The notes under the pieces are model-generated. The model made no database searches and was not told the DNA's origin. It saw only the letters and a list, made by a program, of their open reading frames with translations. DNA of 64,000 nt from Leucosporidium creatinivorum (Eukaryota; Basidiomycota; Microbotryomycetes; Leucosporidiales; Leucosporidiaceae): positions 189,581 through 253,580 of the forward strand of contig BCKL01000005.1 of NCBI GenBank assembly GCA_001600635.1, in the 5' to 3' direction. A program made the position numbers and the translations under genes. This document shows positions 11,339-61,853 of this stretch, in pieces. How positions within the stretch are numbered: position 1 is the first letter of the stretch; each line of letters begins with the position of its first letter.

Positions 11339-12673
11339 TCATTCACCGAGAGTAAGCTCGATACCGTTCTCCGCAAGCATGGAGCTAAGACCTGCCAGCT
11401 CGTCGTCTGGCCACCAATCGTCGTGGGTCAAGGCGGCAGGAAGGGCGACGGACCTCAACGAAGTCGGCGCCGAGCTCATCCAACTCGCAAAGCCCTCGAA
11501 GCTGAGCTGTGAGAGGTAGATGGCAACGGCGGTGGCAGTAGACTTCATGTTGTGAGTGTGGGAGAGAGAGAAGTAGCGTAGGTGCTTGAGCTCCGCTAGG
11601 AGAGAGAAGAGGTTGTTCAAGTCGAGGCCGTGAAAGCCGATCGTGAGGCTTCGAAGGAGCGGCATGGCCTTGACGAGGCCCTCGACTTGGCGAACATTAT
11701 CCTCTCCTCGTTTGGCGAGGGCGTCGGCTCTCTGATCCTGCTCAGCGTCGCGCATCGTGAACTTGGCGAGCTGAGGGGCGACGATCTTGACGGCTTCCAT
11801 CAGCTTTCCGCCCTCGCTGATGCAGACTTCTCCGACGTCGAGACGCTTGAGGGTGTTTTGCGTGGCTCGAAGGAGAGCTCCGATCAACTCGAGGTTCTTG
11901 ACGTCGGAGAGTCGAAGGTCGATGAGGTGGGAAGGAGGGTGGTTGAATTCGAAAGGCGCGCTCTTGTCAAGAGTGTCCGTCCCAATATGCATGAGGCTGA
12001 GTATCTCGAGATTGGGCCATGCTTCGAAGAGCCTGTACAGCGTCAAGGTTGGTCAGGAAGCTATTCGCCGAGCCGGTGCGTTCAAGCCGACTCACTCGTC
12101 GAGCACTGAGATGGGCAAGGGGCTCACTCCAAACAGCCCAGCTTCTCGGAGCGCGACTCCGCAGAGGCCATCCCTCACCACCTTGCCGAGCGAACCGTCC
12201 TCGCGGCGACGTGCTGGAGCACAAAGCTCCCGGTTCAGCTCGAGAGCGAGGCGCTCAAGCTTCGGGCACAGACTGAGCAGCTTGGCGATCTTGGCTCCCT
12301 GTCCGCTTGACTTTTTCGCTTCTGCAGTGATGTCGAGCGAGCGGACGGCCCGGCGCGAGCGGTCGGTAGCTTTGAGGACTTGAGCGAGTCGTTGCGCTTT
12401 GGCGGAGGAGCTGACAGTGTAGTGAGGAAGGGGAAGGGCGAAGGAGCACCATGAGCGACACACGAGTCCGTACTGAACGCGCTGCGCTTGCCCCTTCTCC
12501 TCGTCAGGCCAAACGAAGCCCGCGAGAGCGAGCTCGAAGATGCGAGTGAGCGTCTCGACGGGCAGCGTGGCAGCGAAAGCTTCTGTAGGCTGTTGCGGGC
12601 GGGTGTAGCTGTCGATGGTAGACTCCTGGTCCGAGTCGTAGTCGGAGGAGCTCTGATCCGAGTAGTCTTCCAT
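11339..12673 (-). CDS. F-box/LRR-like family protein, type II (copy 1)
   Basis: Member of a locally expanded family. Two exons, 12673-12096 and 12032-11339, with a 63-bp intron, giving 423 aa. The N-terminus is acidic and disordered, then comes the F-box-like helix TRPQQPTEAFAATLPVETLT followed by RIFELALAGF. The rest reads as irregular leucine-rich repeats (LERLALELN, LRSLTIGFHGLDLNNLF, LRSVALPAAL). F-box proteins usually bring targets to SCF ubiquitin ligases through SKP1; that role is inferred here from a weak F-box match. The intron falls at the same place as in the other copies, just before the conserved LxxWPxLExL block. Start chosen at 12673 because the paralogue at 39338 starts at the same aligned position. 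It lies head to head with a family A gene 765 bp away. Confidence 0.8.
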
Positions 12674-13437
12674 TGCGAGCGGCGAGAGTCGAACAGCGAG
12701 GTGAAAGCGGGAGGGCAAGAGATGGGAAGGCTCGAGGGAGTCAAAATTAGGCGAGCAGGCGAGAGGGGTGAGAGGGTGCAGGTGAGCTGAGAGAATGAGA
12801 ATGGCTGTATTGCTTCGCTGCGCGTTTCCGTACTCACGCACCTCAGCTGAGCTCTTCTCGCGACCCAGTTCAAGCTTCGCCGAGCTCATCCTCTCGCTGG
12901 CCAGTCTCTCTCGACCTCTCCTGAGGTTGCTAGTAGCCCTCACCGCTTCTTGAGCAGTATTATGATGCATGCCCAGCTTCTCTAAGGCAGCCTGTAAGAT
13001 CCTTCTCGACGTCTAGCCAGCGCCGAGCACGTTCCCCCATCGCCGAGGCAGCGGTGGGCACAGCGAGAGGTTCAGCCAGGATTGCAGGACTGCTGTAACA
13101 TTAAGAAAAACGACTCATTCTTGTTCTTCACTCTGCGCACTTTTGAGGCTCGAGACTCGCTTTCTCGAGCTTTCGAGAGCCGGGCGAGCTTTCGCCGAGC
13201 TCGCTTAGAGGGGTGAGGGACACAAGGAGGAGACGGCAGCAAGGGCCAAAAAAACAGACGAGACATGGAGATGACTCTGCGCCGTTGAAGCAATCCACGA
13301 GGGGGCTGAGGCCTAGCGGAGCGCCCTCGGCCCGCTGAGCGTTGCCTCGGCGGAGCTGCAGAGCTGTGCATGCGCGCAGAATTCACTTCCCATTCTCTCC
13401 GTCTCGCGTATCTTCTCTTCGCTACTTTCTCTTCACC
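12674..13437. promoter_or_regulatory. Divergent intergenic region between type II F-box-like gene and family A copy
   Basis: No gene seen. It holds two conserved blocks. GAGCTCGGCGAAGCTTGAA (minus strand, 12887-12869) also occurs upstream of the type II copies at 35303 and 39338. The 26-bp family A block lies at 13316-13341. Both blocks recur at fixed distances from their start codons at other loci, so this region looks like the shared promoter of the pair. Confidence 0.6.
13316..13341 (+). promoter_or_regulatory. Conserved upstream block of family A genes (locus 1)
   Basis: The block runs GCGGAGCGCCCTCGG and then CCCGCTGAGCG, ending about 97 bases before the family A start codon. Near-identical blocks lie at 48472-48498 and 60526-60551 and, more diverged, at 38667-38642 on the minus strand, each about 90-100 bases before a family A ATG. 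Such fixed spacing suggests a core promoter or 5' UTR element. Confidence 0.6.
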
Positions 13438-14628
13438 ATGAGCGCCTATCCAGTGCAACAGTCCCGCCGTCACGACCCGACGTTTCTCGCCCAGCTCAAC
13501 CTCACTCCCGAGGATCTCAACTTCGTGGAGAGGCAGTGACACGGAAAGAGGCTGTTAGAGTATATCAAGCCTCTGAGCTCTATCTTCAAGCATTCAGCAC
13601 GGACAAAACGTAGTACAGCACAAATCCGGGAGCTCCGGACGGAGTACCCGAAGGCCTTCGAGCGCCGAAGCGAGTTCTGTGAATTGTTCACTGGGCCAGC
13701 GCCCTTCTTCCCTCGCCAAAGAGTGGGCAGGTCGGCAGAATACTCTGTAGAATGGTCGAAAGTAGTTGAACTTGCCCAGTACGTCGACTCAACTCGGCGA
13801 GAGCCGTAGGAATTGTTCTCGTTGTCATGCTGTGTGGTGCTGACGTTTAATGCTGCAGAGCCGCTATCGAGCAGACTCAACAGCAGCTCAAGTCGCTCGG
13901 CACCAAGGACAACTGGCGGGTGCTTCATGAATCGTTAGTGCTGGAGCCCTCCGACCCAATCCCGACCCGTAATCGTCCCTTATTCAGGGTGAGTTTGGGC
14001 CTTCGCTACACAATTATATTTGATGACCCTCCTCTTGATTCCCCAGCTCATGGTGAAGCGCTGTTGCGGTCAGTTCGGCGCCGTGAAGAACATCGCCGAG
14101 GCAGAAGCTGACCTCTTTCTGCAGCCGATACGCTATACAACTACGTCGAGCGCATAGCCTGTCGCATGGCGGGAACCTACAGACACCCAGGAGAGCCCGA
14201 ATTGTCGTCACCCATCATCTGGATTGGCTACAGGGATTGGCACACGCTCAACTCCTTCGACCGAGCCCGCGTCGTCCTCTGCTGCAAGGAGTACGAAGAG
14301 GTGCGCGCCTGTTGCAGGCGAGATAGACTCAGAAGCTCACTCCGCCCTTGACTTGGTCATACAGTACGTCGACAAGACTACTGAACGCTTTGCGAGCCAT
14401 GGAGTGGACAAGGCGTTGGAAGTGGAGGTGCCGGAGCATGCGAGTCTGCCCGCTCGCTGGGCGTCAAAGAGTACCAGCTGACGGCTTTCACTTATATAGA
14501 TGACAGCAAAGCACCCGTACTTTGAGCTTCAGCACCGGCACATCCCCAAGCTCAGTTCGAGGCAAGCTCGGCGCTCGGGCGTTTCGGAGGAGGAGCTTCG
14601 CAGGCGCTGGAAGGGATGGCGGAGAATT
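13438..14628 (+). pseudogene. Family A gene, copy 1 (decayed)
   Basis: Homologue of the intact gene at 48596. It starts MSAYPVQQSRRHDPTFLAQL, but a TGA interrupts the frame at codon 34, where relatives have Trp (MEKHWAGQ against VERQ-stop-HGK). Downstream, family blocks persist in order: FCELFTGPAPFF, the WRVLHESL region, YNYVERIACRMAG, IWIGYRDWHTLNSFDRARVV, LCCKEYEE and the C-terminal HRHIPKLSSRQARRSGVSEE. Intron positions match the family (donors near 13780, 13990 and 14300). The normal stop after RRRW is also gone; the frame runs on to 14961, overlapping the 3' end of the next gene. This is a host gene without transposase or viral features. Alternative: a still-expressed shortened protein starting downstream. 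Confidence 0.65.
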
Positions 14629-14927: not shown

Positions 14928-16210
14928 TCACAGATATGTGAGAGTCACACGAGCCTCTTGAGCAGCAATGCGAACTTCAGCCCCCTGGAGCAGCGTCCAG
15001 CGCCTGTCGCGGAAAGATTTGGGCAGTCGGAGATGGCGAAGCTTCGGCGTGCGCTGGAGGAAGCGGACGACGGCGTTGGCGGTGATGGCCCTTAGCACAT
15101 GCTTCGAGGTCGACTTGCCGTAGCGAAGGGTGAACGACCGAAGGCGAGAGAGTTGCGAAAGGCGGTCGAACAAGGTGCTCGAATCGTGCCCATTCACGCC
15201 GAGCGTGAGCGTCCTGACAGCCTTCAAGTGTCCCAGCAGCGTTTCGAGGTACGACGAACCGGTCGCTCCACGCTCGTCGATAATTTTAAGCGTGTGAAGG
15301 CGACGAAGGGCGGATTCGGAGAAGGCAAAGTCGTTCGGCGAAGGAAGGCGGGGATCAGTGGGGATTTTGCCGAGGCGCAGGGTTCTCAACGATCCTTTCG
15401 ACGCCTTGACGAGCTTTTTCACGATGTCGGAGTTTGACGCCAGACGGCCGAGAGGGACTTGGAGGATTGCGAGGGAAGGCAAAGTGGAAGGGACGTCGGG
15501 GCGAGGCTCGGACTCGTCGGGCAGCTGCAGCATCAAGCCGGGCAGGCAAAGCTCCTTGAGCGACGGCCAGCATTCGAGAAGCCTGATGTAGAGAAGTCGC
15601 ACGTCAGCTGGGAAGATCCAGAGTTGAGGAAGAGCACGAACCCGAAGAGAGTGTTCTCGGTGAGGCGGAGCTTGTCTCCTAAGGCGACGGTGTGCAAGTC
15701 CTTCAGCGTACGAAGAGCTTGGTACACGGGCTTCCCGAGCTGTTCGTCGTCTCCCGAGACACCGAGCTTGCTGCCTTCAGTTAGCTGCAGGACGAGCACT
15801 CGCAGCTTCGGAGTGAGCTTGAGCAAGTCGGCGACGCGCTGTCCTCGACCGGCGCCGCTACCCTCGATAGTGATCATGAGCCCTTCCATCTGTCCTTTGA
15901 GGTTGCTGGAGGAGCGAATCGCCTTGACAAGGCTCTCTGCCTCCTGCGAGCTCTTGACCACGACTCGCTCGTTGACCTCTGAGACGTTCCACCAGTGCAA
16001 AGCGACTCGTCCGAGGGCGTAGCGAGCAGCTTGCTCCCTGTCTGCTTTCATTCCGGCGGTCGCGTAGTCGAAGATTTGCTTCAGCGTTTCGGTAGGGAGC
16101 GAGGCGGCGGGAGAGTCGGCGGGTTGCTGAGGGCGAACGTAGGGCGTGGCGGGAGGAGGAGGTGCAGCAGCTGTAGTAGAGCGACGAGGTGTGCGACGAG
16201 GGCGATCCAT
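14928..16210 (-). CDS. F-box/LRR-like family protein, type I (copy 1)
   Basis: Two exons, 16210-15642 and 15582-14928, giving 407 aa. Begins MDRPRRTPRRSTTAAAPPPP, a basic Pro/Ala-rich leader, then YVRPQQPADSPAASLPTETL and KQIFDYATAGM, the F-box-like helix. After the conserved intron comes LLECWPSLKELCLPGL and leucine-rich repeats (LRTLRLGKIP, VRTLTLGVNGHDSSTLFDRL, LRHLRLPKSF). It shares its leader with the copy at 51405 and differs from the type II copies (MEDY../MEAQ..). Tail to tail with the family A gene at 13438. Probable SCF adaptor by family; targets unknown. Confidence 0.82.
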
Positions 16211-18655: not shown

Positions 18656-19468
18656 CTTGTGCTGTAGTTTGGTAGAAAGTGGGAGAAGAGGGAGAGCGGT
18701 TGGAGGTGGACTCGAGGCGAGAAGCGTGTGGGAGGAGGGAGAGAGGTTCAAGTGCGGAATTGGAGCTTTCTAACCTTAGCCTTAGCCCAATTTCTAGTCC
18801 AACTGGCTCCCCTCGTCGCTCGGTCTCGACGCGTCTATGTGGCTGGTTACGCTACAGGACGAGTCTGTACCATTTCAGCTCAATCATCAGCAGCCTCTCG
18901 CCCGCTTCGAAGCCGTCTGACTGGATCTGGCGCTCTCTCTTAACCTCGCAGCGGGCTGGTGCGTTTGGATGGCGGTGTTGAGGGTGCAGTTGGAGCAGGA
19001 ACTTCATCAACGATCTACATGAGTCTACTCGAGGAAAGGCAGCGACTGCAGGGGCGAGGACGGGCACTTTTCGGCGCCGAGCTTCGCGCGGGGGGAAGCT
19101 CGAGAGCTGTTCACGCCACTCTGCTCCAGGTGAAGGCTCCTACATGTCCTAACGCTTTAACCGAGACGACCCCCGAGCCAAGAGCCCACTCACTGCCTCT
19201 CGATGCCTCACCTGGTGCTCGGCCGAGGTGTGGCCTCCCCGCTTCTCGCCCAGTCGCTTCGCTGCAGCTCGGTAGGCGGAGGATCTCATAGGGCCTAACG
19301 TCATGCGATCCTACTGCAGGTCAGCTGCTGGCGCGAGGGGAGACTGAGCCGGGAAGGATGACGGGAAGGGCAAGGGTTCGGTCGACTGGTTTTGCCTCCC
19401 ACCACTCTCTTCTTCCATCTACCCAGCTGTCAGCACACGCTCAAGCTATAGCCCTCCAGTATACCGGC
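18656..19468. other. Intergenic between divergent ALY and membrane-protein genes
   Basis: About 810 bp. I looked for a small gene around 18959-19291 (a 110-residue frame) but saw no family resemblance or plausible splicing, and leave it unannotated. Confidence 0.4.
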
Positions 19469-33336: not shown

Positions 33337-34508
33337 TACTCCCAACGCCTGCGAAGCTCCTCCTGCGAGACGTTCGAGCGCCGAGCTTGCCTCGGACTGA
33401 GGTTGGGGGTGTGCCGGTGTTGAAGCTCGAAGTACGGGACCGTAGTCCTCTTAAAGATGTACTAGGCATCAGCTTCTGCTCTCTAAGAGTCGGAGAAGTG
33501 TAGCTTGGCTCACGTGCTGGGGTTTGGTAGCCCCGTCGGCCTGACGCCCCAGATCTCGGTCGGCGTTAACTTGGTGAATGTACTGAAGGTTAGGGGGCCA
33601 AAATTAGCAGAGCTCCAAGGAATATGTCTGTGTCCTGAAGCGAGATCTCACCTCATCGTACTCCTTGCAGCACAACACCACTCGCGCTCGGTCGAAGAAG
33701 CTGAGCGAGTTCCAATGCTTGAAGCCCAGATACACGATGGCGCTCGACAGTCCCAGATTTTGGTGACAGAAGTGCATCATGCGATAGGCTACGTAGTCGA
33801 CGTACTCGTGGATGAGTTGTTCTGCGCGAAGAGGTGAGCTTTCACAGTTCGGCGATCGCTCGGCGAGCGCTCAAAGCTCACCGCAGTCGTGTTCTGTCAT
33901 TAGCTGGAGCACCAGAGGCTCAGTCAGCCTACTTTACATCTAAGGCGAAGTTGACATACCTTGACAAAGGGAGGTGGGCTGCTGCTGCCGGTCCCTCCTC
34001 CAGGGTTGGAGGCGTGCACTGCACCCAATACAGAGTAGACAGCCGGTGCGGTCAATGTCTTGCGCGATAAGAGGAAAGCTTGGCAGTCGTGGATGGTAGA
34101 CCTGTACTTCCTGCCAGTCAGTGGTTTTCGAGTGCCTCACGCCGAGCGCGACGGTAGTGTCTGGCAGACTCACTCAGCGAGCTGAATCGTCTTGTGAGAG
34201 ACTAGCTTGGTAAAATAAAGTTGGCGGAAGAAGGCATGTCGACCAACGAAACCAATGAACAGCTTGCAGAACTTCTTCTGTCGCTCAACGGCCTCGATGC
34301 ACATTCGGCGCATCTGTTCTGCTGAGGGTCCCCCCCGTTGGGGCGGTAGAGGCTGCAGGTAGCCGGACAGCTTAGACTGTGCCTGCCTCTCCCAGTGGTC
34401 ATCCATCTCGCCTTTCATGGCTGGAGTGACTAAACGGAACTGGAGCTCGGCGAACTCCTCGCGCTGACTTGGGCCGTATTCGGGCGGGGCGTTGACGGCG
34501 TTGCTCAT
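33337..34508 (-). CDS. Family A uncharacterised protein (copy 3)
   Basis: Family A member, more diverged than the 37 kb and 48.6 kb copies. Exon 1 starts at 34508 (MSNAVNAPPEYGPSQREEFA) and holds MDDHWERQAQSKLSGYLQPL and KKFCKLFIGFVGRHAFF, aligning with MEKHWAGQELSKYMTPL and RFCELFSGAAPFF of the copy at 48596. Later exons give LIHEYVDYVAYRMMHFCHQN, SAIVYLGFKHWNSLSFFDRA, RVVLCCKEYDE, YIHQVNADRDLG and the C-terminal block ELQHRHTPNLSPRQARRS before the stop at 33339-33337. Exon 2 (about 34110-33960) is uncertain because its splice sites are weak. No signal peptide or membrane segment. Looks intact. Head to head with a decayed type II F-box-like gene. Confidence 0.65.
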
Positions 34509-35302: not shown

Positions 35303-36523
35303 ATGGAAGCTGAGCCTCATCAATGAGCTACCAGTACCATCTACGCCCGCCCTGAACAGCCTACACACTCTCCCGCCGCTGCTCTGCCCGCGGAAACGCT
35401 TCAGCACATCTTCGAGCTCGCGACGGAGGACGAAGAGGACCCCTTCGAGCGGCAAAGGACGAGTTGGAGCTTCGAGCAAGTGAGCTGGCAGTGGTCGGAA
35501 GCTGCAGGAGAGCAAATGTAGAACGCTGTAGGGGGGGAGGAGCACGCAGACGACCTCGAGGCGGCGCTTCGCAAGACGGGACGAGCTGGGAGGGTCCAGA
35601 GTACCGCTCTTCCTCTGCACATGCTGGATGACTACGCGGGCTCTGCCACAGCAGGGCTTCTGGGCGCTTCCTCCGCCGTAAAGAAGCTGGAGCTGGGTCG
35701 ATCGGACTACGCAGGCGGACACGAGGAAGCCTTGCAGGCCGTACTGCAGCTCAAGGAGATTCAAAAGGTCACCTTCATCGGAGCACCCGGATCATGGCCG
35801 CTGTCCAGGTAAGTCTCTTGCTGTCCTCTCGGCGCCTCGCCGAACGCTACTGATCTCCTCGCTCTCGACGTAGGGTACTGAAGGCCTGGTCAGCTCTAAG
35901 AACGGTCAAGTTCAGCTTTAGCTTGATGAGGGAGACCTCTTTGCCTACCGCTGTGCCCTCCGTCGCCCTTCAGCACCTTGACGTCTTCCCCGAGCTCGAC
36001 GTGATCCGCTCGCTCCTCGCCTACCTCGAAGGCTCGACCTGCCTTGCTCGCTTGTCGTCAGGATCGGTCAACTCGGATGAAGCTGTGTTCTCCCCACCAC
36101 TAAAGCTGCACAAGCCCTGCACCCCCTCGCCGAGCGCCTCCACCGCTTCTCGGCGCCTAATGGCTGGGACCTCAAGGCCTGCATCCTCAAGCTCATGAAG
36201 AGCATGACAAGCCTTTGATACCTCTAGCTCGGTTTCAGCGCCTTTGTCTCCTTCCACCGCGGGATTGACAGCCACAACCTCCCCTCCGCCGCCTCGCTCG
36301 CTCAGCTCGAAGCCCTCGAGCAGGTCATTCTTCGCCATTGCGCGTTGACGAGCAGCGCCTGTCGCCTTCTGTCGCCCTTACCGAGATCTTGGACACTGCT
36401 CCTTCCTCCCTCGAGCGCATCCAGCTCGACTTGAGCCTCTGCATGGGGTGGGCTGAAGGTGCGAGAGCCGAGCTTGAGTCGAGAGCCGAAGCTGTTGGCG
36501 TGTGGCTGGTGTTTGTCGTCTGA
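35303..36523 (+). pseudogene. F-box/LRR-like family, type II (copy 2, decayed)
   Basis: Aligns along its length with the intact copy at 39338 but carries an early in-frame TGA (codon 8) and further frame breaks. Recognisable pieces: ATGGAAGCTGAG at the start, YARPEQPTHSPAAALPAETL and QHIFELATEDEEDPFE (F-box-like), KVTFIGAPGSWPLSR just before the conserved intron, VLKAWSALRTVKFSFSLM after it, and a terminal stretch near LDTAPSSLERIQLDLSLCMG. Convergent with the next family A gene. Young enough that the promoter block is still identical to its sister's. Confidence 0.7.
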
Positions 36524-36888: not shown

Positions 36889-38094
36889 CTACGCCCACCT
36901 CGCCCTCAACTCCTCCGCCGAAACGCCCGAGCGCCGAGCTTGCCTCGAGCTGAGGGAGGGGGTGTGCCGGTGCTGAAGCTCAAAGTATGGACGAGTGGTC
37001 ATCTGCACAAGTGTTTGAGATCAGCTGCAGGCTTCTGAAAGACGTCGCGGTTCCGGCAAACTCACGTGCAGAGGCTTGGGTATCGTCGACGTCCAATCGG
37101 CGAGCAGCTCAAAATCTCGGTCTGCTGCAAACTGGTGGATGTACTGAGGAGAGCGCAGGAGCTCAGCATAGGCAGATATGGTCCGATTCTCATGCAACGA
37201 GGACCCACCTCATCGTACTCCTTGCAGTAGAGCACGACTCGGGCTCGGTCGAAGAAGTTGAGCACCGGCGAGCGCCACTCCTGTAGGCCTAGCCAGACAG
37301 CAGATGAGGAGTGTCGGACATCACCCTGACAGAACTTCACCATCTTCAGGGCAACGTATTCGACGTAGTTGTGAAGAAGGATAGCTGCGAAACCCCCCGA
37401 TCAGCCTCGTTCTCGGCGATGGTCGTCTGTGAGAGCAGGCGCGGCGCACTTACCGCAGAAGGGCAGGTTCATGAGCTATAGGGGTTCCTGCTCGTCAGTA
37501 CTTCTCCAGGGAGGCTCCGATCATGCTCATACCTCGATGAAGGGACGCCTGTTGAACCTGCTTCGGTCTAGTTGACCCTTGTCCGAAGCCCGCTCCACGA
37601 AGGAATGATACAGCATTTCCCATTCCTCGTGTCCGTTACGCCACTTGGTGAGCTGACCGCTAGTGGAGTCAACGACAGATCTGCACGGCGTGTTAATTGT
37701 CAGTCTCATTTGGCGATCATCTCCTTTGAGCGCCAAGCTTCCATAAAACTCACCGCGCAAGGCTCACTATCGCTTCAAATTGCGCATGCTTCCAGTCAGC
37801 CTCCGCTGAACTTGGCGGAAAGAAGAACGGAGCTGCCCCGCTGAACAGCTCGCAGAATCTGCCGCGAATCTTGACGGCCGACTTGTACTCGCTCCGCAGC
37901 TGAGCGAGCAGGGCTGTCGGACGTTGGCGCAGACCTGGCAGCTTCTCATGGGATACCAGCGGTGTCATGTACTTCGACAGCTCTTGTCCAGCCCAGTGCT
38001 TCTCCATGGCGGCGAGCTCGGCGCTGGTGACGGTACGCTTGAGCTCGGCGAGAGCATGGAGCTCGTGCGGGGAAATGTGTCCGAGCATAGGCAT
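36889..38094 (-). CDS. Family A uncharacterised protein (copy 2)
   Basis: Near-identical over about 1.0 kb, introns included, to the inverted copy at 48596. Body: HELHALAELKRTVTSAELAA, MEKHWAGQELSKYMTPLVSH, RFCELFSGAAPFFFPPS, WEMLYHSFVERASDKGQLD, LLHNYVEYVALKMVKFCQGD, LNFFDRARVVLYCKEYDE and the C-terminal ELQHRHTPSLSSRQARRSGV, ending RARWA (stop 36891-36889). The given start (38094, MPMLGHISPHELHA) is the first Met before the family block; 38139 is also open. The native promoter and start (MSTPPPLHFN at 38544) lie about 400 bp upstream beyond an insertion. If that insert is spliced out (donor AGA/GTGCGC near 38511, acceptor GATAGAG near 38110), the frame is kept, giving a gene of 36889-38544. 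Confidence 0.68.
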
Positions 38095-38112
38095 TCGCAC
38101 CTCTATCGCTTC

Positions 38113-38511
38113 ACCATTCCATGTACGATATATCAGCACTCATTCAGTACTCGCTCGACCTCGCTACGACTCGCCCTTCGCTCCTTCCTCAACTCGCTCG
38201 ACCTCCCTTCGGCTCGGCCTTCGCTCGTCCCAGCTCGGAACGAGATCTCTCCCTCGATGGGCTCAGGAGAGATGGATAGGACCGACCGTACGGTTGGTAG
38301 GGATTGGAGAGATTAGGAGGGATGTGCAGGAGAAGGATTAGGGATGTAGGAGAGTTGAGGCGGNGAGCGGGCTTTAGGCTGAGGGAGCGGCTATCATCTG
38401 NTGGCCTTAGACTTCTCACGAGCTCTGAGCCACAGGTGAGCATTCGAAGTAGCTATCATGTATTATAGACTTCTCACGAGCTCTGAGCCACAGCCTGCTT
38501 CGAGAGCGCAC
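38113..38511. other. About 400-bp insertion splitting the 5' end of family A copy 2
   Basis: Sequence absent from the equivalent point of the copy at 48596. It contains direct repeats of ACTCGCTCGACCTC (near 38153 and 38189), two undetermined bases (38364 and 38401) and a duplicated 28-bp word starting TAGACTTCTCACGAGC at 38408-38435 and 38466-38493. No coding content and no clear terminal repeats. The undetermined bases mean that an assembly fault cannot be excluded. Confidence 0.55.
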
Positions 38512-38667
38512 TCTGTTAAAATGGAGTGGCGGAGGGGTGCTCATGCTGGAGAAGATAGGAAAAGCGGAAGGAGGCGAGGAAGACAAGAGGCAAGGGCAAG
38601 AACGAATGCGAGGACAGCTTCACAGCCTCGCCGAGGGGAAAGCGCTCAGGTGGGCGAAGCGCACCGC
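38512..38667 (-). promoter_or_regulatory. Displaced native promoter and start of family A copy 2
   Basis: On the minus strand the family upstream block (diverged, 38667-38642) is followed about 98 bp later by an ATG at 38544 (MSTPPPLHFN). The same spacing and sequence (CTCGGCGAGGCTGTGAAG, then CGCATTCGTTCTTGCCC) precede the copy at 48596 (MSTARQFQFG). This identifies the piece as the original 5' end, now separated from the body at 38094. Confidence 0.65.
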
Positions 38668-39337: not shown

Positions 39338-40605
39338 ATGGAAGCTCAGCCAGCTCAAACACCTACCAGCACCACCTACGCCCGCCCTCAACAGCCTACA
39401 GAAGCGTACGCCGCCACGCTGCCCGTCGAGACGCTCAGTCGCATCTACGAGTTCGCTCTGGAGGGATTCCTCGCGCCTGACGAGGATATGGCTCAGGCGC
39501 AGCGCATCAAGTACGGCCTCGTATGTCACTCGTGGTGCTTGGCTGCCGTCCCCCTCCCTCGCTACATCGTCACGTCCTCCAACAAGGCGGAGCGGCTCGC
39601 CCAGCTGCTCAAGGGGCACAAGCGCTCGGGGCACAGCGTGCGCGCCGTCCAAGTCTCAACCTGGTCGGAGGAGGATTCAGGCCGTGGCCGAAAGATCGTT
39701 AAACTGCTGGCTCAATGCCCCCGGCTCGAACGCCTTGTCCTCCAAATCGAGGGTCGACTCTGCGCAACGGGGAGCATCCACACGGACGGCGTCCTAGGGA
39801 AGCCGCTCAGTCAAGCGTGTATGAAGCTCGTGCATCTGCGGCATTTTGAGCTCATTTCGACTAGCCCTTTGCCCCAAGCCGTCCTCGCCGAGTTAGTCGT
39901 TTCGCATTCCGAGCTTCCAACTCGAAGTTGACGCTGCAGATCCTGAATCCTAGATTCCTGAGCTCTTGGCCGAGTCTTACCAGCCTTCGCCTCGACAACG
40001 CAGGAAGAAGCGAGGGCCCCTTCGAGATCTACGAGTTTGAGACGGTCCCGGCACACCTCGCCAAGCTGTCCATCATCGCTTCCAACGACTACGACCTCAC
40101 TCGCGCGCTCATCAAGGCTACCTCCAAAACTTTGAGATCGCTGGACGTCGGCGAGGTTCCTACCAACAGCGGGAAGGCCGTCATTGATGCCGTCACGCCG
40201 GTGCTGCCTCAACTCACCAGCTTCACCATCGCCGACGGAGAGGTCACGCATCCACAACACACAACGCCTCGACTTCTATTCCTTGAGAGAGCCATCAAGC
40301 GCCTGGAGCGTGTCGAGACCCTCATCATCGGCGTGAACGGCTACTCGGACCCCTCCATCCTCTTCGCTCTTCTCGGCACTCTCTCCCACCTACGCTCCTT
40401 CACCCTCGAGACGAGTCGGTACTCGGGTTTAATGCGCCTACGCCAAATCTCCGTTGATCTCGTCCTCTCCTTCTTCAAGAACGCCCCTCCCACCCTCCGA
40501 AACATCGGCTTGCCCTCGGCATGGTTCGATTCTTGGCCGAAGCGCCTCAACGAGCTCGGCTACGCGAGAGTGGAGTCCGGTCTTGCGGTCTGGCGAGGAG
40601 CTTAA
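39338..40605 (+). CDS. F-box/LRR-like family protein, type II (copy 3)
   Basis: Two exons, 39338-39891 and 39954-40605; 401 aa. Starts MEAQPAQTPTSTTYARPQQP, then AATLPVETLSRIYEFALEGF (F-box-like), then KYGLVCHSWCLAAVPLPRYI, closely matching the copy at 12673. The acceptor at 39953 (CCTAG) rather than the nearer GCTGCAG at 39939 keeps frame and gives EFLSSWPSLTSLRL, the conserved post-intron block. Leucine-rich repeats follow (LRSLDVGEVPTNSGKAVIDA, VETLIIGVNGYSDPSILFAL, LRNIGLPSAWF). Head to head with family A copy 2. Looks intact. Probable SCF adaptor by family, partner unknown. Confidence 0.83.
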
Positions 40606-48595: not shown

Positions 48596-49803
48596 ATGAG
48601 CACCGCCCGCCAATTTCAATTCGGTACACACGAGCTCCATGCTCTCGCCGAGCTCAAACGTACCATCACCTCCGCCGAGCTCGCCCCCATGGAGAAGCAC
48701 TGGGCTGGACAAGAGCTGTCGAAGTACATGACACCGCTGGTATCCCATGAGAAGCTGCCAGGTCTGCGCCAACGTCCGACAGCCCTGCTCGCTCAGCTGC
48801 GGAGCGAGTACAAGTCGGCCGTCAAGATTCGCGGCAGATTCTGCGAGCTGTTCAGCGGGGCAGCTCCGTTCTTCTTTCCGCCAAGTTCAGCGGAGGCTGA
48901 CTGGAAGCATGCGCAATTTGAAGCGATAGTGAGCCTTGCGCGGTGAGTTTTATGGAAGCTTGGCGCTCAAAGGAGATGATCGCCAAATGAGACTGACAAT
49001 TAACACGCCGTGCAGATCTGTCGTTGACTCCACTAGCGGTCAGCTCACCAAATGGCGTAACGGACACGAGGAATGGGAAATGCTGTATCATTCCTTCGTG
49101 GAGCGGGCTTCGGACAAGGGTCAACTAGACCGAAGCAGGTTCAACAGGCGTCCCTTCATCGAGGTATGAGCATGATCGGAGCCTCCCTGGAGAAGTACTG
49201 ACGAGCAGGAACCCCTATAGCTCATGAACCTGCCCTTCTGCGGTAAGTGCGCCGCGCCTGCTCTCACAGACGACCATCGCCGAGAACGAGGCTGATCGGG
49301 GGGTTTCGCAGCTATCCTTCTTCACAACTACGTCGAATACGTTGCCCTGAAGATGGTGAAGTTCTGTCAGGGTGATGTCCGACACTCCTCATCTGCTGTC
49401 TGGCTAGGCCTACAGGAGTGGCGCTCGCCGGTGCTCAACTTCTTCGACCGAGCCCGAGTCGTGCTCTACTGCAAGGAGTACGATGAGGTGGGTCCTCGTT
49501 GCATGAGAATCGGATCATATCTGCTATACTGAGCTCCTGCGCTCTCCTCAGTACATCCACCAGTTTGCAGCAGACCGAGATTTTGAGCTGCTCGCCGATT
49601 GGACGTCGACGATACCCAAGCCTCTGCACGTGAGTTTGCCGGAACCGCGACGTCTTTCAGAAGCCTTCAGCTGATCTTGAACACTTGTGCAGATGACCAC
49701 TCGTCCATTCTTTGAGCTTCAACACCGACACGTCCCCAACCTCAGCCCAAGGCAAGCTCGGCGCTCGGGCGTCACGCAGGAGCAGCTTCGCAGGCGGTGG
49801 TAG
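48596..49803 (+). CDS. Family A uncharacterised protein (copy 4, reference copy)
   Basis: Best-preserved member. Six exons: 48596-48942, 49016-49163, 49221-49242, 49312-49487, 49552-49629, 49693-49803; 293 aa, frame closed throughout. Not recognised as any known family. Soluble, with no signal peptide or membrane helix. Motifs conserved between copies: MEKHW near residue 32, RFCELFSGAAPFF near 80, WEMLYHSF near 135, RRPFIELMNLPF near 162, HNYVEYVALKM near 180, FFDRARVVLYCKEYDE near 215, and a basic tail RHVPNLSPRQARRSG at the end. The 22-nt exon 3 is short. No DDE, HUH or reverse-transcriptase motifs. The start is set by the conserved block 98 bp upstream and by the aligned MST start at 38544. 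Tail to tail with a type I F-box-like gene. Confidence 0.78.
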
Positions 49804-50145: not shown

Positions 50146-51405
50146 TCAGACACCAAGGATCAACGCGACACCCTTCTGGAGAGCGGCAGCTTTGACCTGT
50201 TCCACTGCCGGCGTCGACCAGTACTTCTTGGGCAAAATCGAGGCGAGGCGAAGATTGCGAAGCGTCGTTTGCTGCAAGAGGTAGGCCACCGTCCCGTCGG
50301 CAGTAATTCCTTGCAACGAAGATTTGCGAGTAAGTCCCCCTTGGAGCATGGTGAAAGACTCGGGTTGCGGCATGCGAAGGAGACGGTCGAAGAGAGCGCT
50401 CGTGTCGTGTCCATGAAAGCCGATCTTGAGCACTTTGATGGCCTGCAGTTTGTCGAGGACGGCTTCGAGATAGTTCGAGTCGAAGACGGTAGCGCCATCC
50501 GTGATGGTAAGCTGACGAAGGCGAGGTGCAATGGGAAGGAGGAAGGAGAATTGGGCAGGACCAGGCGTCGTGACCGAATCGACTGGGCCTAAAGCGAGCC
50601 TGGTGAGTGTCGCTGCCGAGGCTCCGAGAATCTTGGACAGCTCCTCGGCGTGATTGAAGCCGTAGCCGAGGGGGAACTCGAGGCTCTTCAGCGCAGGGAG
50701 ACTCTGGTGCTCGGCGAAGGGCTTCCCCGCCATCGGCCACAAGTTAGGAGCTTTCAGGGTCTTGAGGGACGACCAGGAGCTCAGAAGACTATAACCAACC
50801 AAGAAAGTGAGCTTGCGAAGAGCGAGAGTGTAGCTTCCGACTCACCGGAAGACAGTCGCCGAGTCAAGCGAGATCGTGCTGAGCAGTCTGACCCGCTCCA
50901 GCTTCTTCAAGGTCTGTAGCGCGTCGACCAGAGGCTTTCCTAGCATATCGCCGCCGCGCCCCAGGCTCTTTGAGTCCTTGACGAAGCGCAGCGAGAGGAA
51001 CTCGACGTCGGAGCAAGCGCGAACGAGCGAGGCGATGCGCTGGCCCCTCCCTGCTCCGTCGGCCTCGACTGTGATGAAGATGCCAGCTGGTGCTGTGCGG
51101 GTGGACTGGAGAATTGCCGTTGCGAGCCTCTCGGCCTCATGCGAGTCCTTGACCACGACTCGCTTGTTGACCTCTGCGACGCTCCACCAGTGCACAGCGA
51201 CTCGTCCGAAGGCATAGCGAGCAGCTTGCTCCGCTGCTGGCTTCAGTCCGTCAATCGTGTAGTCGAAGATCTGCTTGAGCGTTTCGGTGGGGAGCGAGGC
51301 GGCGGGAGAGTCGGTGGGTTGCTGAGGGCGAACGTAGGGCGTGGTGGGAGGAGTAGGTGCAGCAGCTGCAGTCGAGCGGCGAGGTGTACGACGAGGGAGA
51401 TCCAT
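50146..51405 (-). CDS. F-box/LRR-like family protein, type I (copy 2)
   Basis: Two exons, 51405-50846 and 50788-50146; 400 aa. Starts MDLPRRTPRRSTAAAAPTPP, then VRPQQPTDSPAASLPTETLK and QIFDYTIDGLK, nearly the same as the copy at 16210. After the conserved intron LLSSWSSLKTLKAPNLWPM begins the leucine-rich part (LPALKSLEFPLGYGF, LQAIKVLKIGFHGHDTSAL, LRNLRLASILP). Strong N-terminal similarity to the 16210 copy but a more diverged repeat region is what one expects if the repeats, the likely target-binding surface, evolve faster. Looks intact. Confidence 0.83.
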
Positions 51406-52655: not shown

Positions 52656-52850
52656 GCTAGCGATGGCGTGAGGCGGGCGGGTGGTAGTCAAGGACGTGGT
52701 AGAAGAGAGAAAAGCGAATTCGCCTCTCGGAGCCTTCTCGCTCTTTTTCTCTGACCCTTCGCGCGGTCAAGCTCAGCATGCAGCCAGCCTCAATACTTCT
52801 TACTTCAACACTGTGCTACTCTCTGTCGACGCATAACCTTTCTACACATC

Positions 52851-55800: not shown

Positions 55801-57758
55801 AGCTCCGAGACGATTGAAGCTCACCAGAAAGTCCTCGTGTACTTGCCGAACCTGCTCTTGTAGTACCTCTGGCCGTAGAGGAACTGACGGCAGAGGGCTT
55901 CTCCTGCTCGGCGGGAGGTCAAAGGTCAGCTCGGCGCTCTCGACGAGGGCAACTCTACGCACCAGAGGGCATGTTGGTGTCCATCTCGACCCATGTTCCA
56001 CCGATCGTCTGGAACTCGCCACTCTCGACACGGCCTTTGATCTTGTTGAAGAGGAGAGGGTAGTCTTGCTCGAGCCTGCGCCGGGCGCCGAGTCAGCCGA
56101 TGCGCTTGGAAGAGAAAAGCTCGGAGAGGAGACCAACCAGTAGTACTGCTGCGCTTGACTTGCGACGAAGCGATGCTCGGGATAGCGATCCATCAAGTCG
56201 AGCTGCGTCGACCACGACCTGTTGTCGACCGAGATCGTCAGCCTCCGGTGCGGTCGCCGTCAGAGGGCAAGGAACGTACCTGGCGCTCTTCTGCCTGGTA
56301 GCTGAGTAAGTCCACAACCACGCCGTGTCAATGTGGCAATTTCCGATGCCCCAGGTCGCTGAAGCGGCGGGGTCGCCCTTGTAGATCTTGTGGCCGAGTT
56401 CCTCCCAGCCTTGACCGAAAACCTGTACGGTGTGCAAGGGATTGAGCGAGAGTGTGCAAGAGATTGAGAGAGGGTGTGCAAGTGATTGAGAGAGAAAGAG
56501 GAGGAGTAGAGGATCGTCAGCGTTCTGCCCAGCCCTTCCTCGCCGCCGATGGAGACGAACGGGCTCCAACTCACCTTCTCAGCCAACTTCCTCGACTCGG
56601 CAATCGACTCTTCGTCATCCCACTTGAACGTGTTCATGATCGAGTTGCCGACCTCCATGCACTTGTTGCCGAGGGGAGAGTTCTCGGGAAGCTCACGAGC
56701 GAGATCGCGGATGGTGCGAAAGTCCCAGAGGAGGCGCCAGGCTTCCATGTTGGGGACGACGAGGTCGGCCGAAGCGAGACGGAACATGCGGTCGTTCTTG
56801 GGCGGGTCGTTGACTGTGATGCAGGGCATTAGTGGGAGCTGGAGAGGAAGCGGGAGGAGACCGACCTTCGGGCTTGCCGTTGCCGAACATGCCTGCGAGT
56901 GAGGGGTCAGCGAGCTGCAATCAAGACTCCAAGCTCAAGGAACGAACCGTTGCACGATACCTCGATGTAGAACTGCAAGCGATTGAGGTCAGCTTCCCGG
57001 CTCGGCGCTTCTTCTCCCTCAACTCGGCTCACCTTGTAAGTCCCCTTCCTCGCCTTCTTGTCCAAGATGAAGTCGACCCTCCTATCTCCACCAAATCCTC
57101 CGGTAATTCCCTGAAGGCTCATCCCCTCGGTATCGAAGACCATCGCCTCACAGCTCGGATCCCACTCGAGCTGGATCCGCTCGTAGTCCTCGTCGAGCCA
57201 CTTGGGGGGGATGGTGAGCGAAACGCGGAACCAGTGGTGAGTCCAGGAAGGTCCAAACTCTTGGCCCTTGTGCGCCGGCTTGAACTTTTGCTTGATGGCC
57301 TCTTTGAAGGGGGTCTGAGGGAGCGAGGTCGCCGAGCAGGCCAACGGTCAGCTTCGGGTGTCTGAGAGCTCACCTCGTTGCTCTGGTTACTCTCCTGCAG
57401 CATCGGAAGCAGTCAATGACTCACCTTGTCCCTGCCCGGGCTACTCCAATACTCCAACTTGACCCACTCGGCTCCATCCTCCCGCTGATGATAGAGCACA
57501 TCCGTGATGTTCTTGTAGGGTCCTCCTTCAAATTGATCGAGTCGGCCTGCTCGTAGGTACAGCGTCGTATCGGAGCGAGAGGGCGAGAGGAGCAGCGAGC
57601 GAGGTGCGTGGAGCGGGGAGACGGCGGGGCGGGTTAGCGACCGCATCGAGGTGAGCTACAGAGCACGGAAGTAGGAGCGCACCAAGAGTCAATCCTCTGA
57701 AATGCATGGGCTGGGGCAAACCCGCCTGGACGGGGTACAGCGGCGCAGAGGACGGCAT
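52851..57758 (-). CDS. AMS1: Vacuolar/cytosolic alpha-mannosidase AMS1 (GH38)
   Basis: Glycoside hydrolase family 38 enzyme that trims free and vacuolar oligomannose. In yeast it reaches the vacuole by the Cvt/autophagy route, and the protein here has no signal peptide ([20 protein letters not shown]). Catalytic region: [20 protein letters not shown] supplies the His/Asp zinc ligands; [40 protein letters not shown] and [16 protein letters not shown] follow, the last holding the Asp nucleophile. [20 protein letters not shown] is also diagnostic. The C-terminal beta domains include [20 protein letters not shown] and [20 protein letters not shown]. Many short introns, one of which contains a perfect CTCGGCGCCGAG beside its branch site (55478-55489). 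A segment of this gene, about 56177-56419, has been copied to 59.9 kb. Confidence 0.93.
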
Positions 57759-58496: not shown

Positions 58497-59146
58497 TCAA
58501 GTCCACACGAGCTTGACATGACTGTCTGCCGCTTGTACCTCCACCGAGCGCTTCTCCGTCCAGTCCCAACTATCGTCGAGCCAGCGAGGAAGGCAAATGC
58601 GCGCAACGGAGGGCGGTAGACTCTGCCCGAAGAAGTGCATAACGTCCTGTGCCGAGCATGCCTTGACGGCGCCGGAAGACGGAGAGCCCACCATGGAGAA
58701 TTGAACTAGCTCGGGGAAGGGCTTGAGGTCGGCGAGATGGTCGTTCACCAAGTGGTGCCGCTCTAGAGTACGGAGCTTCTTCATGTCGCGGAGGAGGTAC
58801 CTCAAGTCTCGACTTGCAGTCCATCCGTCTGGCGCTGAGAAGTGGTGAAGCCGCTCGGCGAGGGGCAGTAACGCTCGAGCACAGTCGAGGCCGGGAAGAA
58901 GGTCCCTCCCCACCTCCTCCTGATGGCCATTGTTGATATTGCTGACACGCTGAGTGAAAGTGGCCTGTCCAGAGGCGTGAGGTATGGGAGGAGAGCCAGA
59001 ACGAGGCGGTGGTCGCCGGAGATGTCGAGGTGTTGGATGTCGAGGTGTTGGAGGGTGTGGGCGGGGGATGGCATTGGTGGGGGCCTAAAGTGCTCGTACG
59101 GGCAGTTGAGGCGAAGGGTGTGCAATCCGGGCCATGATTTGAACAT
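58497..59146 (-). pseudogene. F-box/LRR-like family, 3' exon fragment
   Basis: Begins at a sequence matching the start of exon 2 (MFKSWPGLHTLRLNCPYEHF, compare FLSSWPSLTSLRL), with leucine-rich repeats and a C-terminal part (FFGQSLPPSVARICLPRWLD) like the family ends. There is no F-box-like first exon, and the fragment changes frame near 58910. It is cut off just before the inverted-repeat element at 59168. Divergent from the family A relic at 60640, so the usual pair orientation is kept. The subtype cannot be decided without exon 1. Confidence 0.6.
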
Positions 59147-59167
59147 CCTTTGGGCGAGAGTGACTCG

Positions 59168-59780
59168 CTGGGCTCCACACGGTACGGAACATACACTTTT
59201 TGACCCTCTGTACCCGTACCGTACCGGTTCAAAGGCGTATGTACCCGGTACAGGTGGGTACGGGTACAGAGTGTACCTGTACCCCGAGAAAATGGGCGGA
59301 GAGGGCGAGGTCCGAGCTCGGCGCTGCCTGGGAGGCGTGAAAAGCTGTATTCAAAGGTTGACCGAGAAAAGCTGCCGTTCGCTCATGCACTGCAATGCAT
59401 TTCCTTTGCAAACGAGTCTTGTAGTGAAGTAAAAATGTTCAACGCTTCCTTTCAAGAGCCGGCGAAGGAGGCAAAAAGCTTTTGGCTGAGCAAAATGGCT
59501 CTTGAAAACGCCCAACAGGATACTCGAAATCTGCAGAATAGACCACTAAGCTATCTGGGCCCCAAAGCTGGCGAGTCAAGCAAGCTAGCTCGCCTGTAGA
59601 CGACTCTTGAGCCTCCGCCGAGCGCCCTTCGCCGAGCTCTCTCGATCCCGCGGTACAGTGGTGCAGCGGTACATTTTAGACCCCTCTGTACCTGTACCGC
59701 ACCACTACCTCCAGGCGGGTACAAACGAGCTACAACCGGAGCAGTACGGCACCTTCGGTACCGTACGGCGTGGAGCCCAG
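59168..59780. mobile_element. 613-bp non-coding element with 23-bp imperfect terminal inverted repeats
   Basis: The left end starts CTGGGCTCCACACGGTACGG (59168). The right end, read in reverse, starts CTGGGCTCCACGCCGTACGG (59780). I count 20 matches over the 23 terminal bases. Both ends are rich in GTACC/GGTAC words, and a subterminal direct repeat (CTCTGTACCCGTACCG near 59206, CTCTGTACCTGTACCG near 59686) adds structure. GAGTGA beside both ends (59158 and 59781) may be a target-site duplication, slightly offset on the left. No coding capacity; most like a MITE-type non-autonomous DNA transposon. Confidence 0.6.
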
Positions 59781-59871
59781 GAGTGAGGTCAGCGCAGGCA
59801 GGCTTCAACGCCGAAAGAAAGCGCCGACCTACTCGGCGAGAAGTGAAAGGTTGACAAAAGCCTGGTCACTC

Positions 59872-60118
59872 GGGGTAGCGATCCATCAAGTCGAGCTGAG
59901 TGGACCAGGACCTGGCGTCAACCGAGAACGTTAGCTTCCATCGCTCTCGCCTGCCTACGTCGACGAGCAGGAACGTACCTGGCGCTCTTCTGCCTGGTAG
60001 CTGAGTAAGTCCACAACCATGCCGTGTCGAGGTGGCAACTTCCGATGCCCCAGGTCGCTGAAGCGGCGGGGTCGCCCTTGTAGATCTTGTGGCCGAGTTC
60101 CTCCCAGCCTTGCCCGAA
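59872..60118 (-). pseudogene. Copied internal fragment of AMS1
   Basis: Closely matches 56177-56419 of AMS1, including the intron between the SAR codons and [13 protein letters not shown]. It covers [20 protein letters not shown] and the zinc-ligand motif (GSCHLDTAWLW here, [11 protein letters not shown] in the gene). Since the intron is present, the copy was made from DNA rather than mRNA. The exon parts are clearly more conserved than the intron. Same orientation as AMS1, about 3.7 kb away. Confidence 0.85.
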
Positions 60119-60525: not shown

Positions 60526-60551
60526 GCGGAGCGCCCTCGGCCCGCTGAGCG
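60526..60551 (+). promoter_or_regulatory. Conserved upstream block of family A genes (locus 5)
   Basis: By eye identical to the 13316-13341 block and placed about 89 bp before the ATG at 60640. The flank to its left (AGCCATTGCTGTAGCCT near 60490, TTCGCCGAGCTCGGTTGAAG near 60395) also matches the flank at 48340-48450. Confidence 0.65.
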
Positions 60552-60639
60552 CCGCCTCCTCGGCGAGGCTATGAGGGGGGCAGATTGGTACTTTCTGCCT
60601 CTCTGTTCTTCTCTCTTCGTTCTCCCTGCCCTCCTACAC

Positions 60640-61853
60640 ATGAACCCTTCTCCACCTGTTCACTTCGGCCCTTTCGAGCTCAACTGGCTCGCCCGTCTCC
60701 GGGGCAAGGTCAGTACTCAGTGCTGAGCCTGCCGAGCTCAGCCTTGACCCCTTGGAGGATTACTGGATCGGGCAGAGGTTAGCTCTTCCCCAAAAAGCCG
60801 CAAGGCAGGCAGCATACTCCGGAGGAAACGCACGCGCTCTTGAAGGAGTACAAAGCTGCCCTCAAAGTCCGCCGAAAGTTTTGTGAGCTGTTCCTCGGGA
60901 CAACTCCTCTCTTCCTCCGACCGTCTACGAGGTCCTCGTCGCAAGAGATTAGAGAGGCCGAGGAGCTGGTTCGCCTTGCTCAGTAGTCCTTGTTGGGTCC
61001 GGCACACCACAAAAACCCGGGGAGTACAATCGCCGAAGCTTACGTTTCGACTTCTCGCGGCGACTGTGCAGGTCGTCTGCCAACCAAAGTAGCAGTCTAC
61101 TCAACGATTGGTATACAACTCCCCATGAATGGACCCTCATGTACCACAATTTCATACGCGATGAGTCGGTCCACCCTTTGCAGGAGCGCACTGAGTTTCA
61201 CGGACGCCCATTCATCGAGGTGAGAGCATTGCGCTTTCTGCCTCTATCCTAGTCGCTTCTCACATACTTACTGACACACTCGCTCACAGCTCATGTCACA
61301 CACACGCTGTGGTGAGCGTGGCCGTCGAGACTCGACAGGCTGTCGCCGAAACCGAAACTGAGCTCTCTCTCCAGCGACCCTCCTGTACGACTACGTCGAG
61401 TTTGTCGCACTCAAGATGGCAGAAGCTTGCAATCCCGAGCCGAGAAACGCCTCCGTCATAGTATGGCTCGGGTACCGAGAGTGGCGCTTGCTCAACTTCT
61501 TTGACCAAGCCCGAGTCGTGTTGTGCTGCAAGGAGTACGAAGAGGTGGGCTTGTTACACTCGAATACCGCTAAGAAGCAGCTTGTTAGCTGATCGTGTTA
61601 TGTGGGTCTGTAGTACATTCTCAGAATGAATGCAGAGCACCTGTCTCGGCGTCACTTGGTGCCGAACCCTCGCATGTGAGCAGAATCCCCTCTTCACCCG
61701 TCTTGACTACCTACAGCTTACCATGCTTATCTCTGCTAGATGGCAACCGCCTCCATGAACGAGCTGGCGCACCGACACGTCCCCAACCTCAGCCCGAGGC
61801 AGGCTCGGCGCTCGAGCGTTTCGGAGGAGGAGTTGAGGGCGAGGTGGGCTTAG
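60640..61853 (+). pseudogene. Family A gene, copy 5 (decayed)
   Basis: Start MNPSPPVHFGPFELNWLARL aligns with MSTARQFQFGTHELHALAEL, but the first exon then changes frame more than once before KEYKAALKVRRKFCELF. Later parts are well kept: WTLMYHNFIRDESVH, GRPFIEL, LLYDYVEFVALKMAE, VIVWLGYREWRLLNFFDQAR, VVLCCKEYEEY and the C-terminal HRHVPNLSPRQARRSSVSEE with a stop at 61851-61853. Intron positions match copy 4. The upstream block is intact, so decay of the coding part seems recent. Confidence 0.65.

What the first reader, a model, noticed from the sequence alone, without database searches (positions are those of the whole stretch)
11339..61853. A recurrent two-family gene module: uncharacterised family A always next to F-box/LRR-like genes, with orientation set by subtype
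Seen: five family A copies (13.4, 33.3, 36.9, 48.6 and 60.6 kb) and six F-box/LRR-like copies (11.3, 14.9, 35.3, 39.3, 50.1 and 58.5 kb); every A copy has an F-box-like neighbour. Type II copies (MEDY/MEAQ leader) at 12673, 35303 and 39338 are head to head with A. Type I copies (MD-PRRTPRRST leader) at 16210 and 51405 are tail to tail with A. The 11.3-16.2 kb locus has the full order II(-), A(+), I(-). Inference: II-A-I is an ancestral unit that duplicates as a block and then decays. I know no described system of this shape. F-box families often diversify when they recognise changing targets, so A could be the target or partner, but that is speculation.
Basis: partly seen in the sequence, partly recalled or inferred. 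Interest (0 to 1): 0.87.

Follow-up and report, generated by a model that had tools for sequence, protein, structure and literature searches.

The report
Paired F-box and tail-family genes
A stretch of one fungal chromosome carries many copies of a gene module in which fast-changing F-box genes sit beside a gene of an undescribed protein family in opposite orientation, which suggests an evolving recognition or degradation pair whose function is still unproven.

Summary
On the window's contig (C5) I count 25 A-type genes: 15 family A copies and 10 relatives first found by a shared C-terminal tail. 21 of 25 have an F-box/LRR-like gene (FBX) within 3 kb, and all 27 such flanks are on the opposite strand (18 head to head, 9 tail to tail; 25 distinct FBX). 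None of 20,000 rotations reached 21. Family A has no credible Pfam or PDB match; it belongs to a larger set of 87 tail matches (65 at E<=0.001). The 62 on other contigs have no F-box hit within 3 kb, and FBX on C2, C17, C50 and C5 484-716 kb have no A match. So the pairing belongs to one C5 cluster. Two claims fail: orientation is not set by one clade per side, and A and FBX do not co-duplicate cleanly: sister A copies carry FBX of different clades, near-identical FBX flank dissimilar A bodies, and gene-conversion-like mosaics occur. Most likely an SCF adaptor with a co-expressed substrate or partner family; this mechanism is inferred. F-box antidotes of worms and rice are the nearest analogue; toxicity is untested.

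The parts
11339..12673 (-). F-box/LRR-like gene, window type II; two exons 12673-12096 and 12032-11342, 424 aa in my hand splice, no lesion found; head to head with A1
   Evidence: F-box-like PF12937 E 0.0065, under the curated cut-off
12674..13437 (.). divergent intergenic region between FBX and A1, with copies of the CTCGGCGA motif
13438..14610 (+). family A copy A1, six-exon plan, in-frame TGA in exon 1; open frame runs past the usual stop after the tail
14928..16210 (-). F-box/LRR-like gene, window type I; two exons, same intron position as type II; tail to tail with A1; no lesion found
33342..34508 (-). family A copy A2, one frameshift in the model
35303..36096 (+). damaged F-box-like gene (in-frame stops), head to head with A2; partial row groups with C5 371.9/373.5/425.2/440.9 kb, not with the type II clade
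36895..38067 (-). family A copy A3; its first codons are cut off by an element at 38077-38518
38077..38518 (.). solo-LTR-like insert, 93% identical to C19:572790-573230
39338..40602 (+). F-box/LRR-like gene, type II, no lesion found; head to head with A3
48596..49803 (+). family A copy A4: exons 48596-48942, 49016-49163, 49221-49242, 49312-49487, 49552-49629, 49693-49803; 293 aa
49714..49800 (+). conserved tail ELQHRHVPNLSPRQARRSGVTQEQLRRRW; tail copies also at 14524-14610 (+), 33342-33428 (-), 36895-36981 (-), 61761-61847 (+)
50149..51405 (-). F-box/LRR-like gene, type I, no lesion found; tail to tail with A4
58503..59311 (-). weak C-terminal remnant of an F-box/LRR-like gene on the 5' side of A5
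   Evidence: score 90, fragment
60640..61853 (+). family A copy A5, one frameshift in exon 1 in the model (aligned from 60731; ATG by eye)

Best explanation
SHOWN: in this fungus a rapidly turning-over cluster on one contig pairs F-box/LRR-like genes with members of an undescribed tail family (family A and its C5 relatives). The F-box gene is usually divergent from A across a short gap (375-834 bp in 16 of 18 head-to-head cases, measured between match edges, with an assumed 1.2-kb gene for A-prime), sometimes with a second, convergent F-box gene behind A. Module parts duplicate, form mosaics and change partners while orientation stays fixed. INFERRED: the two genes are co-expressed from the shared region. 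The F-box protein docks on SKP1 as an SCF adaptor, and its fast-changing LRR-like half recognises a family A protein (its own or that of a rival module or relative) and controls its level by ubiquitination. The module would then be a recognition pair kept in orientation by co-regulation and diversified by conversion and partner exchange. The conserved tail would be a docking or regulatory segment common to the whole superfamily, not specific to the F-box, because most tail matches have no F-box neighbour.
For: Adjacency and strand rule beyond chance; 25 of 27 FBX below 450 kb on C5 adjoin an A-type gene. F-box profile matches in 11 of 15 FBX rows at E<=0.1, best 4.6e-7, and C5:444166-444306, inside a module FBX, passes the curated cut-off. 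Weak LRR matches. SKP1 matches at one place only, two exons on C30. Against the type II query, N-terminal halves of three module FBX are 53-67% identical and LRR halves 34-38%. Motif CTCGGCGA in 15 of 15 upstream regions of family A (ten Markov-sampled nulls: maximum 6-8); the longer CTCGGCGAA is 70-120 nt before the A start in 11 of 15 and, reversed, 225-270 nt before it in 7 of 15. These regions are related by descent, so shared words alone do not prove function. Partner exchange at constant orientation and mosaics: type I pair dS 0.237 in the N half and 0.024 in the LRR half (unspliced frames); A3/A4 dS 0.013 in the first 220 aligned codons and 0.177 in the last 62.
Against: No direct evidence of interaction, ubiquitination or expression; structure prediction was off. 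FBX and tail-family members each occur without the other elsewhere in the genome. A and 5' FBX distances are uncorrelated, which one-to-one coevolution would not predict. Intact A does not require an intact linked FBX: A at 358.3 kb has no lesion while its FBX is degraded. The LRR assignment rests on weak matches under the cut-off. The exact CTCGGCGAA motif is nearly absent from the six A-prime loci fetched on C5 below 172 kb (one occurrence).
Confidence: 0.42

Rival explanations
1. No functional link: two unrelated multicopy families became neighbours once, and local duplication, conversion and inversion multiplied the pair. Orientation is inherited, not selected.
For: One contig only; both families are large and occur apart elsewhere; many copies are damaged (8 of 15 A models with a stop or frameshift, plus A3 split by an insert; 10 of 19 modelled FBX damaged or fragmentary).
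Against: FBX from several clades occupy the same slot in the same orientation, which simple inheritance of one ancestral pair explains less well unless conversion or very old divergence is invoked; shared upstream motif, itself explicable by descent.
Confidence: 0.36
2. Toxin-antidote (killer) elements: A is toxic in spores or zygotes and the linked F-box protein is the antidote that degrades it, as shown for KSS proteins in Caenorhabditis tropicalis and as proposed for HPA in rice.
For: Tight linkage of a fast-changing F-box gene with a fast-changing partner, module multiplication and decay. Precedents: F-box antidotes acting by SCF (PMC12680543, passages) and an F-box antidote in rice (PMC10657391, passages).
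Against: 62 tail matches off C5 sit without any F-box hit within 3 kb. The predicted asymmetry is not seen: undamaged A in 3 of 8 modules with an undamaged FBX against 1 to 3 of 7 without. Toxicity and segregation could not be tested.
Confidence: 0.14
3. A transposon or retroelement carries the module around.
For: A Copia-like polyprotein lies beside one tail gene on C19 and a solo-LTR-like insert splits A3.
Against: The insert interrupts A3 rather than carrying it. Family A genes have introns, and the 15 A copies found are on one contig. I saw no long repeat pair bracketing a module, but made no dedicated search.
Confidence: 0.03

Closest known systems
KSS/KSL F-box antidotes with FARS-3-derived toxins, Caenorhabditis tropicalis (PMC12680543; passages seen)
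   Same: Clustered, fast-evolving F-box solenoid proteins, mostly on one chromosome, linked to a partner gene, with module duplication.
   Different: Partner here is an undescribed multi-exon family with a conserved C-terminal tail, in opposite orientation, in a fungus; no toxicity shown; many partner-family members lack an F-box neighbour.
Rice qHMS1 HPT/HPA toxin-antidote (PMC10657391; passages seen)
   Same: Two-exon F-box gene with N-terminal F-box, linked to its partner.
   Different: One locus; the toxin is a helicase-like protein; no multicopy module in the passages seen.
S-locus F-box (SLF) and S-RNase self-incompatibility (search listing and abstract starts only)
   Same: Multiple linked F-box genes beside the protein they degrade.
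   Different: Here many modules over about 425 kb, one A per one or two F-box genes; polymorphism not testable; no RNase match found for A.
F-box gene numbers in basidiomycetes (PMC4469406, passages: PF00646 counts of 3 to 43 in the ten genomes of its table)
   Same: F-box genes vary widely in number: 32 PF00646 matches here and at least 128 PF12937 matches.
   Different: The passages seen deal with counts only, not with a paired partner family.

Membership tests
F-box proteins (PF12937/PF00646) | N-terminal F-box motif | tested here: met
   11 of 15 rows match PF12937 at E<=0.1, best 4.6e-7; invariant L-P, E, L and W columns in the motif; one module FBX passes the curated cut-off genome-wide; the window's own type II copy is under it (16.7 against 24.3 bits)
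F-box/LRR (FBXL) proteins | C-terminal leucine-rich repeats | tested here: inconclusive
   LRR_14 E 0.003 for one of the ten ORFs scanned and LRR_At5g56370 E 0.11 for another, both below the cut-off; profile of the N-terminal half against PDB gives F-box/LRR-repeat protein 5 at E 0.026; structure tool off
SCF adaptor | binds SKP1 | not testable with these tools
   SKP1 is present: two exon matches at one place on C30
Eukaryotic toxin-antidote element | two tightly linked genes | tested here: met
   21 of 25 A-type genes on C5 paired
Eukaryotic toxin-antidote element | toxin copies do not survive without an antidote | tested here: inconclusive
   A at 358.3 kb undamaged with a degraded FBX; 62 tail matches without F-box nearby; trans antidotes not excluded
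Eukaryotic toxin-antidote element | one gene kills non-carriers | not testable with these tools
   needs crosses or expression
S-RNase/SLF type self-incompatibility locus | a single locus with linked F-box genes and one RNase | tested here: not met
   dispersed modules along C5 17-445 kb; no RNase match in A
Any described family for A | profile match | tested here: not met
   no Pfam family for A4 at E<=10; four A proteins give only scattered matches at E>=0.09; PDB profile best E 0.085, to a gp41 construct; NCBIfam, PHROGs and PADLOC not searched

The most novel reading that the evidence does not exclude
A fungal, contig-scale family of F-box recognition modules (killer/antidote or nonself-recognition cassettes) in which F-box adaptors and their cognate tail proteins are reshuffled by gene conversion at fixed orientation. 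It would extend the worm and plant F-box antidote principle to fungi with a wholly new partner family.
Probability: 0.17. Interest if true: 0.9.

Novelty: new variant of a known kind. Interest (0 to 1): 0.62.

Why it matters
Linked F-box plus fast-evolving partner is the layout behind plant self-incompatibility (abstract starts) and recently described toxin-antidote elements in worms and rice. A dense, countable set of such modules in a fungus (if it can be cultured and crossed, which is not known here) would give a tractable place to ask how F-box adaptors gain, lose and exchange substrates. Independently, a superfamily with 87 tail matches in one genome (65 at E<=0.001), a well-kept 29-residue tail and no described domain is a sizeable unannotated family.

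Tried and rejected
Block co-duplication of II-A-I: tested by Mantel and trees, not supported at the 5' side; the 3' side shows a weak correlation. The AU test on A partners of type II FBX (first test) is confounded, because A4, near-identical to A3, was left outside the group; I rely instead on the A394/A400/A422 clade (100/99) with its FBX in different clades. In that test I named FBX 392.6+402.1 after seeing the trees.

Tail as an F-box-specific degron: rejected as a module feature, since the 62 tail matches off C5 (42 at E<=0.001) lack an F-box hit within 3 kb. F-box coordinates there come from capped searches, so unseen F-box genes are possible; in the eight off-C5 loci fetched, tblastn with both FBX proteins gave one match, at E 0.094. 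The tail's third-base identity (0.70 against 0.31-0.51 in exons 1, 2, 4 and 5, 0.63 in the exon 4 core, with the near-identical pair A3/A4 left out) shows nucleotide-level homogeneity; conversion or recent common ancestry are both possible.

Link to the mating-type receptor: the STE3 matches (two exons) are on C25, not C5. Relatives in other species: the session holds none for this genome, so conservation could not be tested. The public prokaryote and viral collections were not searched. Contig-end check: one of six ends, C19's right end, holds TTAGGG repeats (four counted); two had none and three could not be read.

Rows dropped: FBX C5:177578 too short for the tree and the Mantel test (43 of 44 rows; 9 of 10 pairs). 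In the 27 flanks two FBX count twice (25 distinct). The FBX remnants at 248 and 283 kb were not counted as flanks.
Full report
The genome. The window is C5:189581-253580 of a 27.7-Mb, 63-contig assembly. STE3-type pheromone-receptor exons, short GT-AG introns and TTAGGG repeats at one of six contig ends looked at fit a fungus, probably a basidiomycete; the lineage is inferred and no name was available. 'A' means family A, 'A-prime' the C5 genes first found by the shared tail, 'FBX' the F-box/LRR-like family.

The observation. Self-comparison of the window and reading of the frames confirm five A and six FBX copies where reported, the last (58.5 kb) only as a weak remnant. A4 splices cleanly: six exons, 293 aa, introns of 57-73 nt. 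FBX types I and II are two-exon genes with the intron at the same place, so they are one family. The F-box is supported: 11 of 15 aligned members match PF12937 at E<=0.1, best 4.6e-7, with a conserved ARPQQPTDSPAA-LPTETL preamble. LRR evidence is weak.

Genome-wide. The A4 protein finds 15 A copies by body and tail, all on C5 between 178 and 444 kb, and 72 further tail matches on C5 (10), C9, C36, C19, C8, C15, C38, C6, C52, C13, C30 and C26 (counted by hand from its table at E<=1; 50 of the 72 reach E<=0.001). In the loci I held, a profile of A exon 4 also matches near tails on C5, C9, C19, C36 and C52, many weakly (E 5.5e-12 to about 1), but not in the C8 locus, so most of this is one superfamily. 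FBX queries give 99 and 104 exon matches, most on C5, C2, C17, C50 and C62.

The rule. I tabulated 40 FBX and 25 A-type genes on C5. 21 of 25 A-type genes have an FBX within 3 kb (13 of 15 A, 8 of 10 A-prime). All 27 flanks are on the opposite strand: 18 head to head, 9 tail to tail. 25 of 27 FBX below 450 kb adjoin an A-type gene; the 13 above 484 kb do not. No rotation of 20,000 reached 21 of 25, on the whole contig or within 17-445 kb, and no strand shuffle of 100,000 gave all-opposite flanks. The four exceptions are A at 185.0 and 250.4 kb and A-prime at 77.1 and 101.9 kb (the last a weak tail match, E 0.008). At 250.4 kb a weak remnant FBX exists; the A at 284.0 kb, paired at its 3' side, also has a remnant at its 5' side. 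Off C5, 0 of 62 tail matches have an F-box hit within 3 kb (Fisher p 1.7e-16, which ignores relatedness and detection limits).

What fails. In a 43-row tree of N-terminal parts the window's type I clade is purely 3' and its type II clade purely 5', yet all 5' rows, or all 3' rows, do not form one clade (AU p 7.9e-5 and 2.0e-5). A bodies and 5' FBX do not share distances (Mantel r 0.03, P 0.45, 9 modules); 3' FBX do so weakly (r 0.25, P 0.018, 7 modules). A copies at 394, 400 and 422 kb form a clade (100/99), but the FBX at 392.6 and 402.1 kb do not group (AU p 6.5e-13). FBX at 425.2 and 440.9 kb differ by 1% in the compared part while their A bodies differ by 66% (one of these A models, 422.6 kb, is irregular). 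The type I pair at 239.7 and 269.0 kb is a mosaic: dS 0.237 in the N half, 0.024 in the LRR half. A3/A4 also: dS 0.013 in the first 220 aligned codons, 0.177 in the last 62. So modules exchange parts while their layout persists.

Decay. Of 15 A models, 12 have the six-exon plan; 8 show one stop or frameshift. Of the 7 without, A3 is split by an insert, two (369.4 and 422.6 kb) have irregular plans, and four are regular and undamaged (238.2, 270.6, 358.3, 442.5 kb). Some frameshift calls in divergent regions may be alignment artefacts. Of 19 modelled FBX, 9 show no lesion. Undamaged A occurs in 3 of 8 modules with an undamaged FBX and in 1 (up to 3) of 7 without, so the simple killer/antidote asymmetry is not seen.

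Tail and promoter. The tail is 76% identical between A copies, against 24-55% for exons 1, 2, 4 and 5; its 4-fold third bases are 70% identical against 31-51%. Distant copies on C9 and C8 keep much of the protein with other codons, so protein-level constraint is likely, with conversion or recent ancestry on C5 on top. A CTCGGCGA motif occurs upstream of 15 of 15 A genes (null maximum 6-8 in ten draws). The longer form CTCGGCGAA is at -70 to -120 in 11 of 15 and reversed at -225 to -270 in 7 of 15. A shared regulatory element is inferred; common descent of these regions would also leave shared words.

Reading. The strongest defensible statement is a recurrent divergent or convergent F-box/A module, confined to one fast-turnover cluster. 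I favour an SCF adaptor and its substrate or partner (0.42), with plain co-duplication close behind (0.36). The killer-antidote reading has good precedents (PMC12680543 and PMC10657391, passages) but lacks any positive test here (0.14). A search of the held library for 'spore killer' with 'F-box' listed two papers, on rice and on C. elegans, so that search showed no fungal case. Four searches on F-box genes, expansion and fungi listed 0, 12, 1 and 3 papers; no title or abstract start named such a module, and I saw passages of two of them only (PMC4469406; PMC12884345).

Noticed in passing
window 38077-38518: A ~440-bp solo-LTR-like element, 93% identical to C19:572790-573230 beside a Copia-type polyprotein, splits exon 1 of A3.
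   Followed up: yes
window 56176-56419 and 59869-60118: Two stretches of a coding gene (alpha-mannosidase-like, recognised by eye) are repeated at 82% and 97% identity upstream of A5, where the paired FBX survives only as a remnant.
   Followed up: partly
window 37172-38067 and 48629-49524: 896-nt inverted repeat, 99% identical, covering most of A3 and A4 with ends inside the genes: recent duplication or conversion.
   Followed up: yes
window 25305-25434: Tandem array of a 13-nt unit GCCCTCCCCCTTC.
   Followed up: no
window 19468-19541 and 21031-21104: Two similar stretches (73%) at the starts of two short frames that look like small membrane or secreted proteins (by eye).
   Followed up: no
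C19:502607-611403 (contig end 615231): Nine tail matches lie within about 113 kb of a contig end with TTAGGG repeats, so part of the superfamily may be subtelomeric.
   Followed up: partly
C5:484-716 kb, C2:26-142 kb, C17:310-372 kb, C50, C62: FBX family members, many in same-strand tandem pairs, without an A match nearby.
   Followed up: partly
whole genome G000: At least 128 matches to PF12937 and 32 to PF00646, against 3 to 43 PF00646 in the ten genomes tabled in PMC4469406: several F-box subfamilies may be expanded beyond this module.
   Followed up: no
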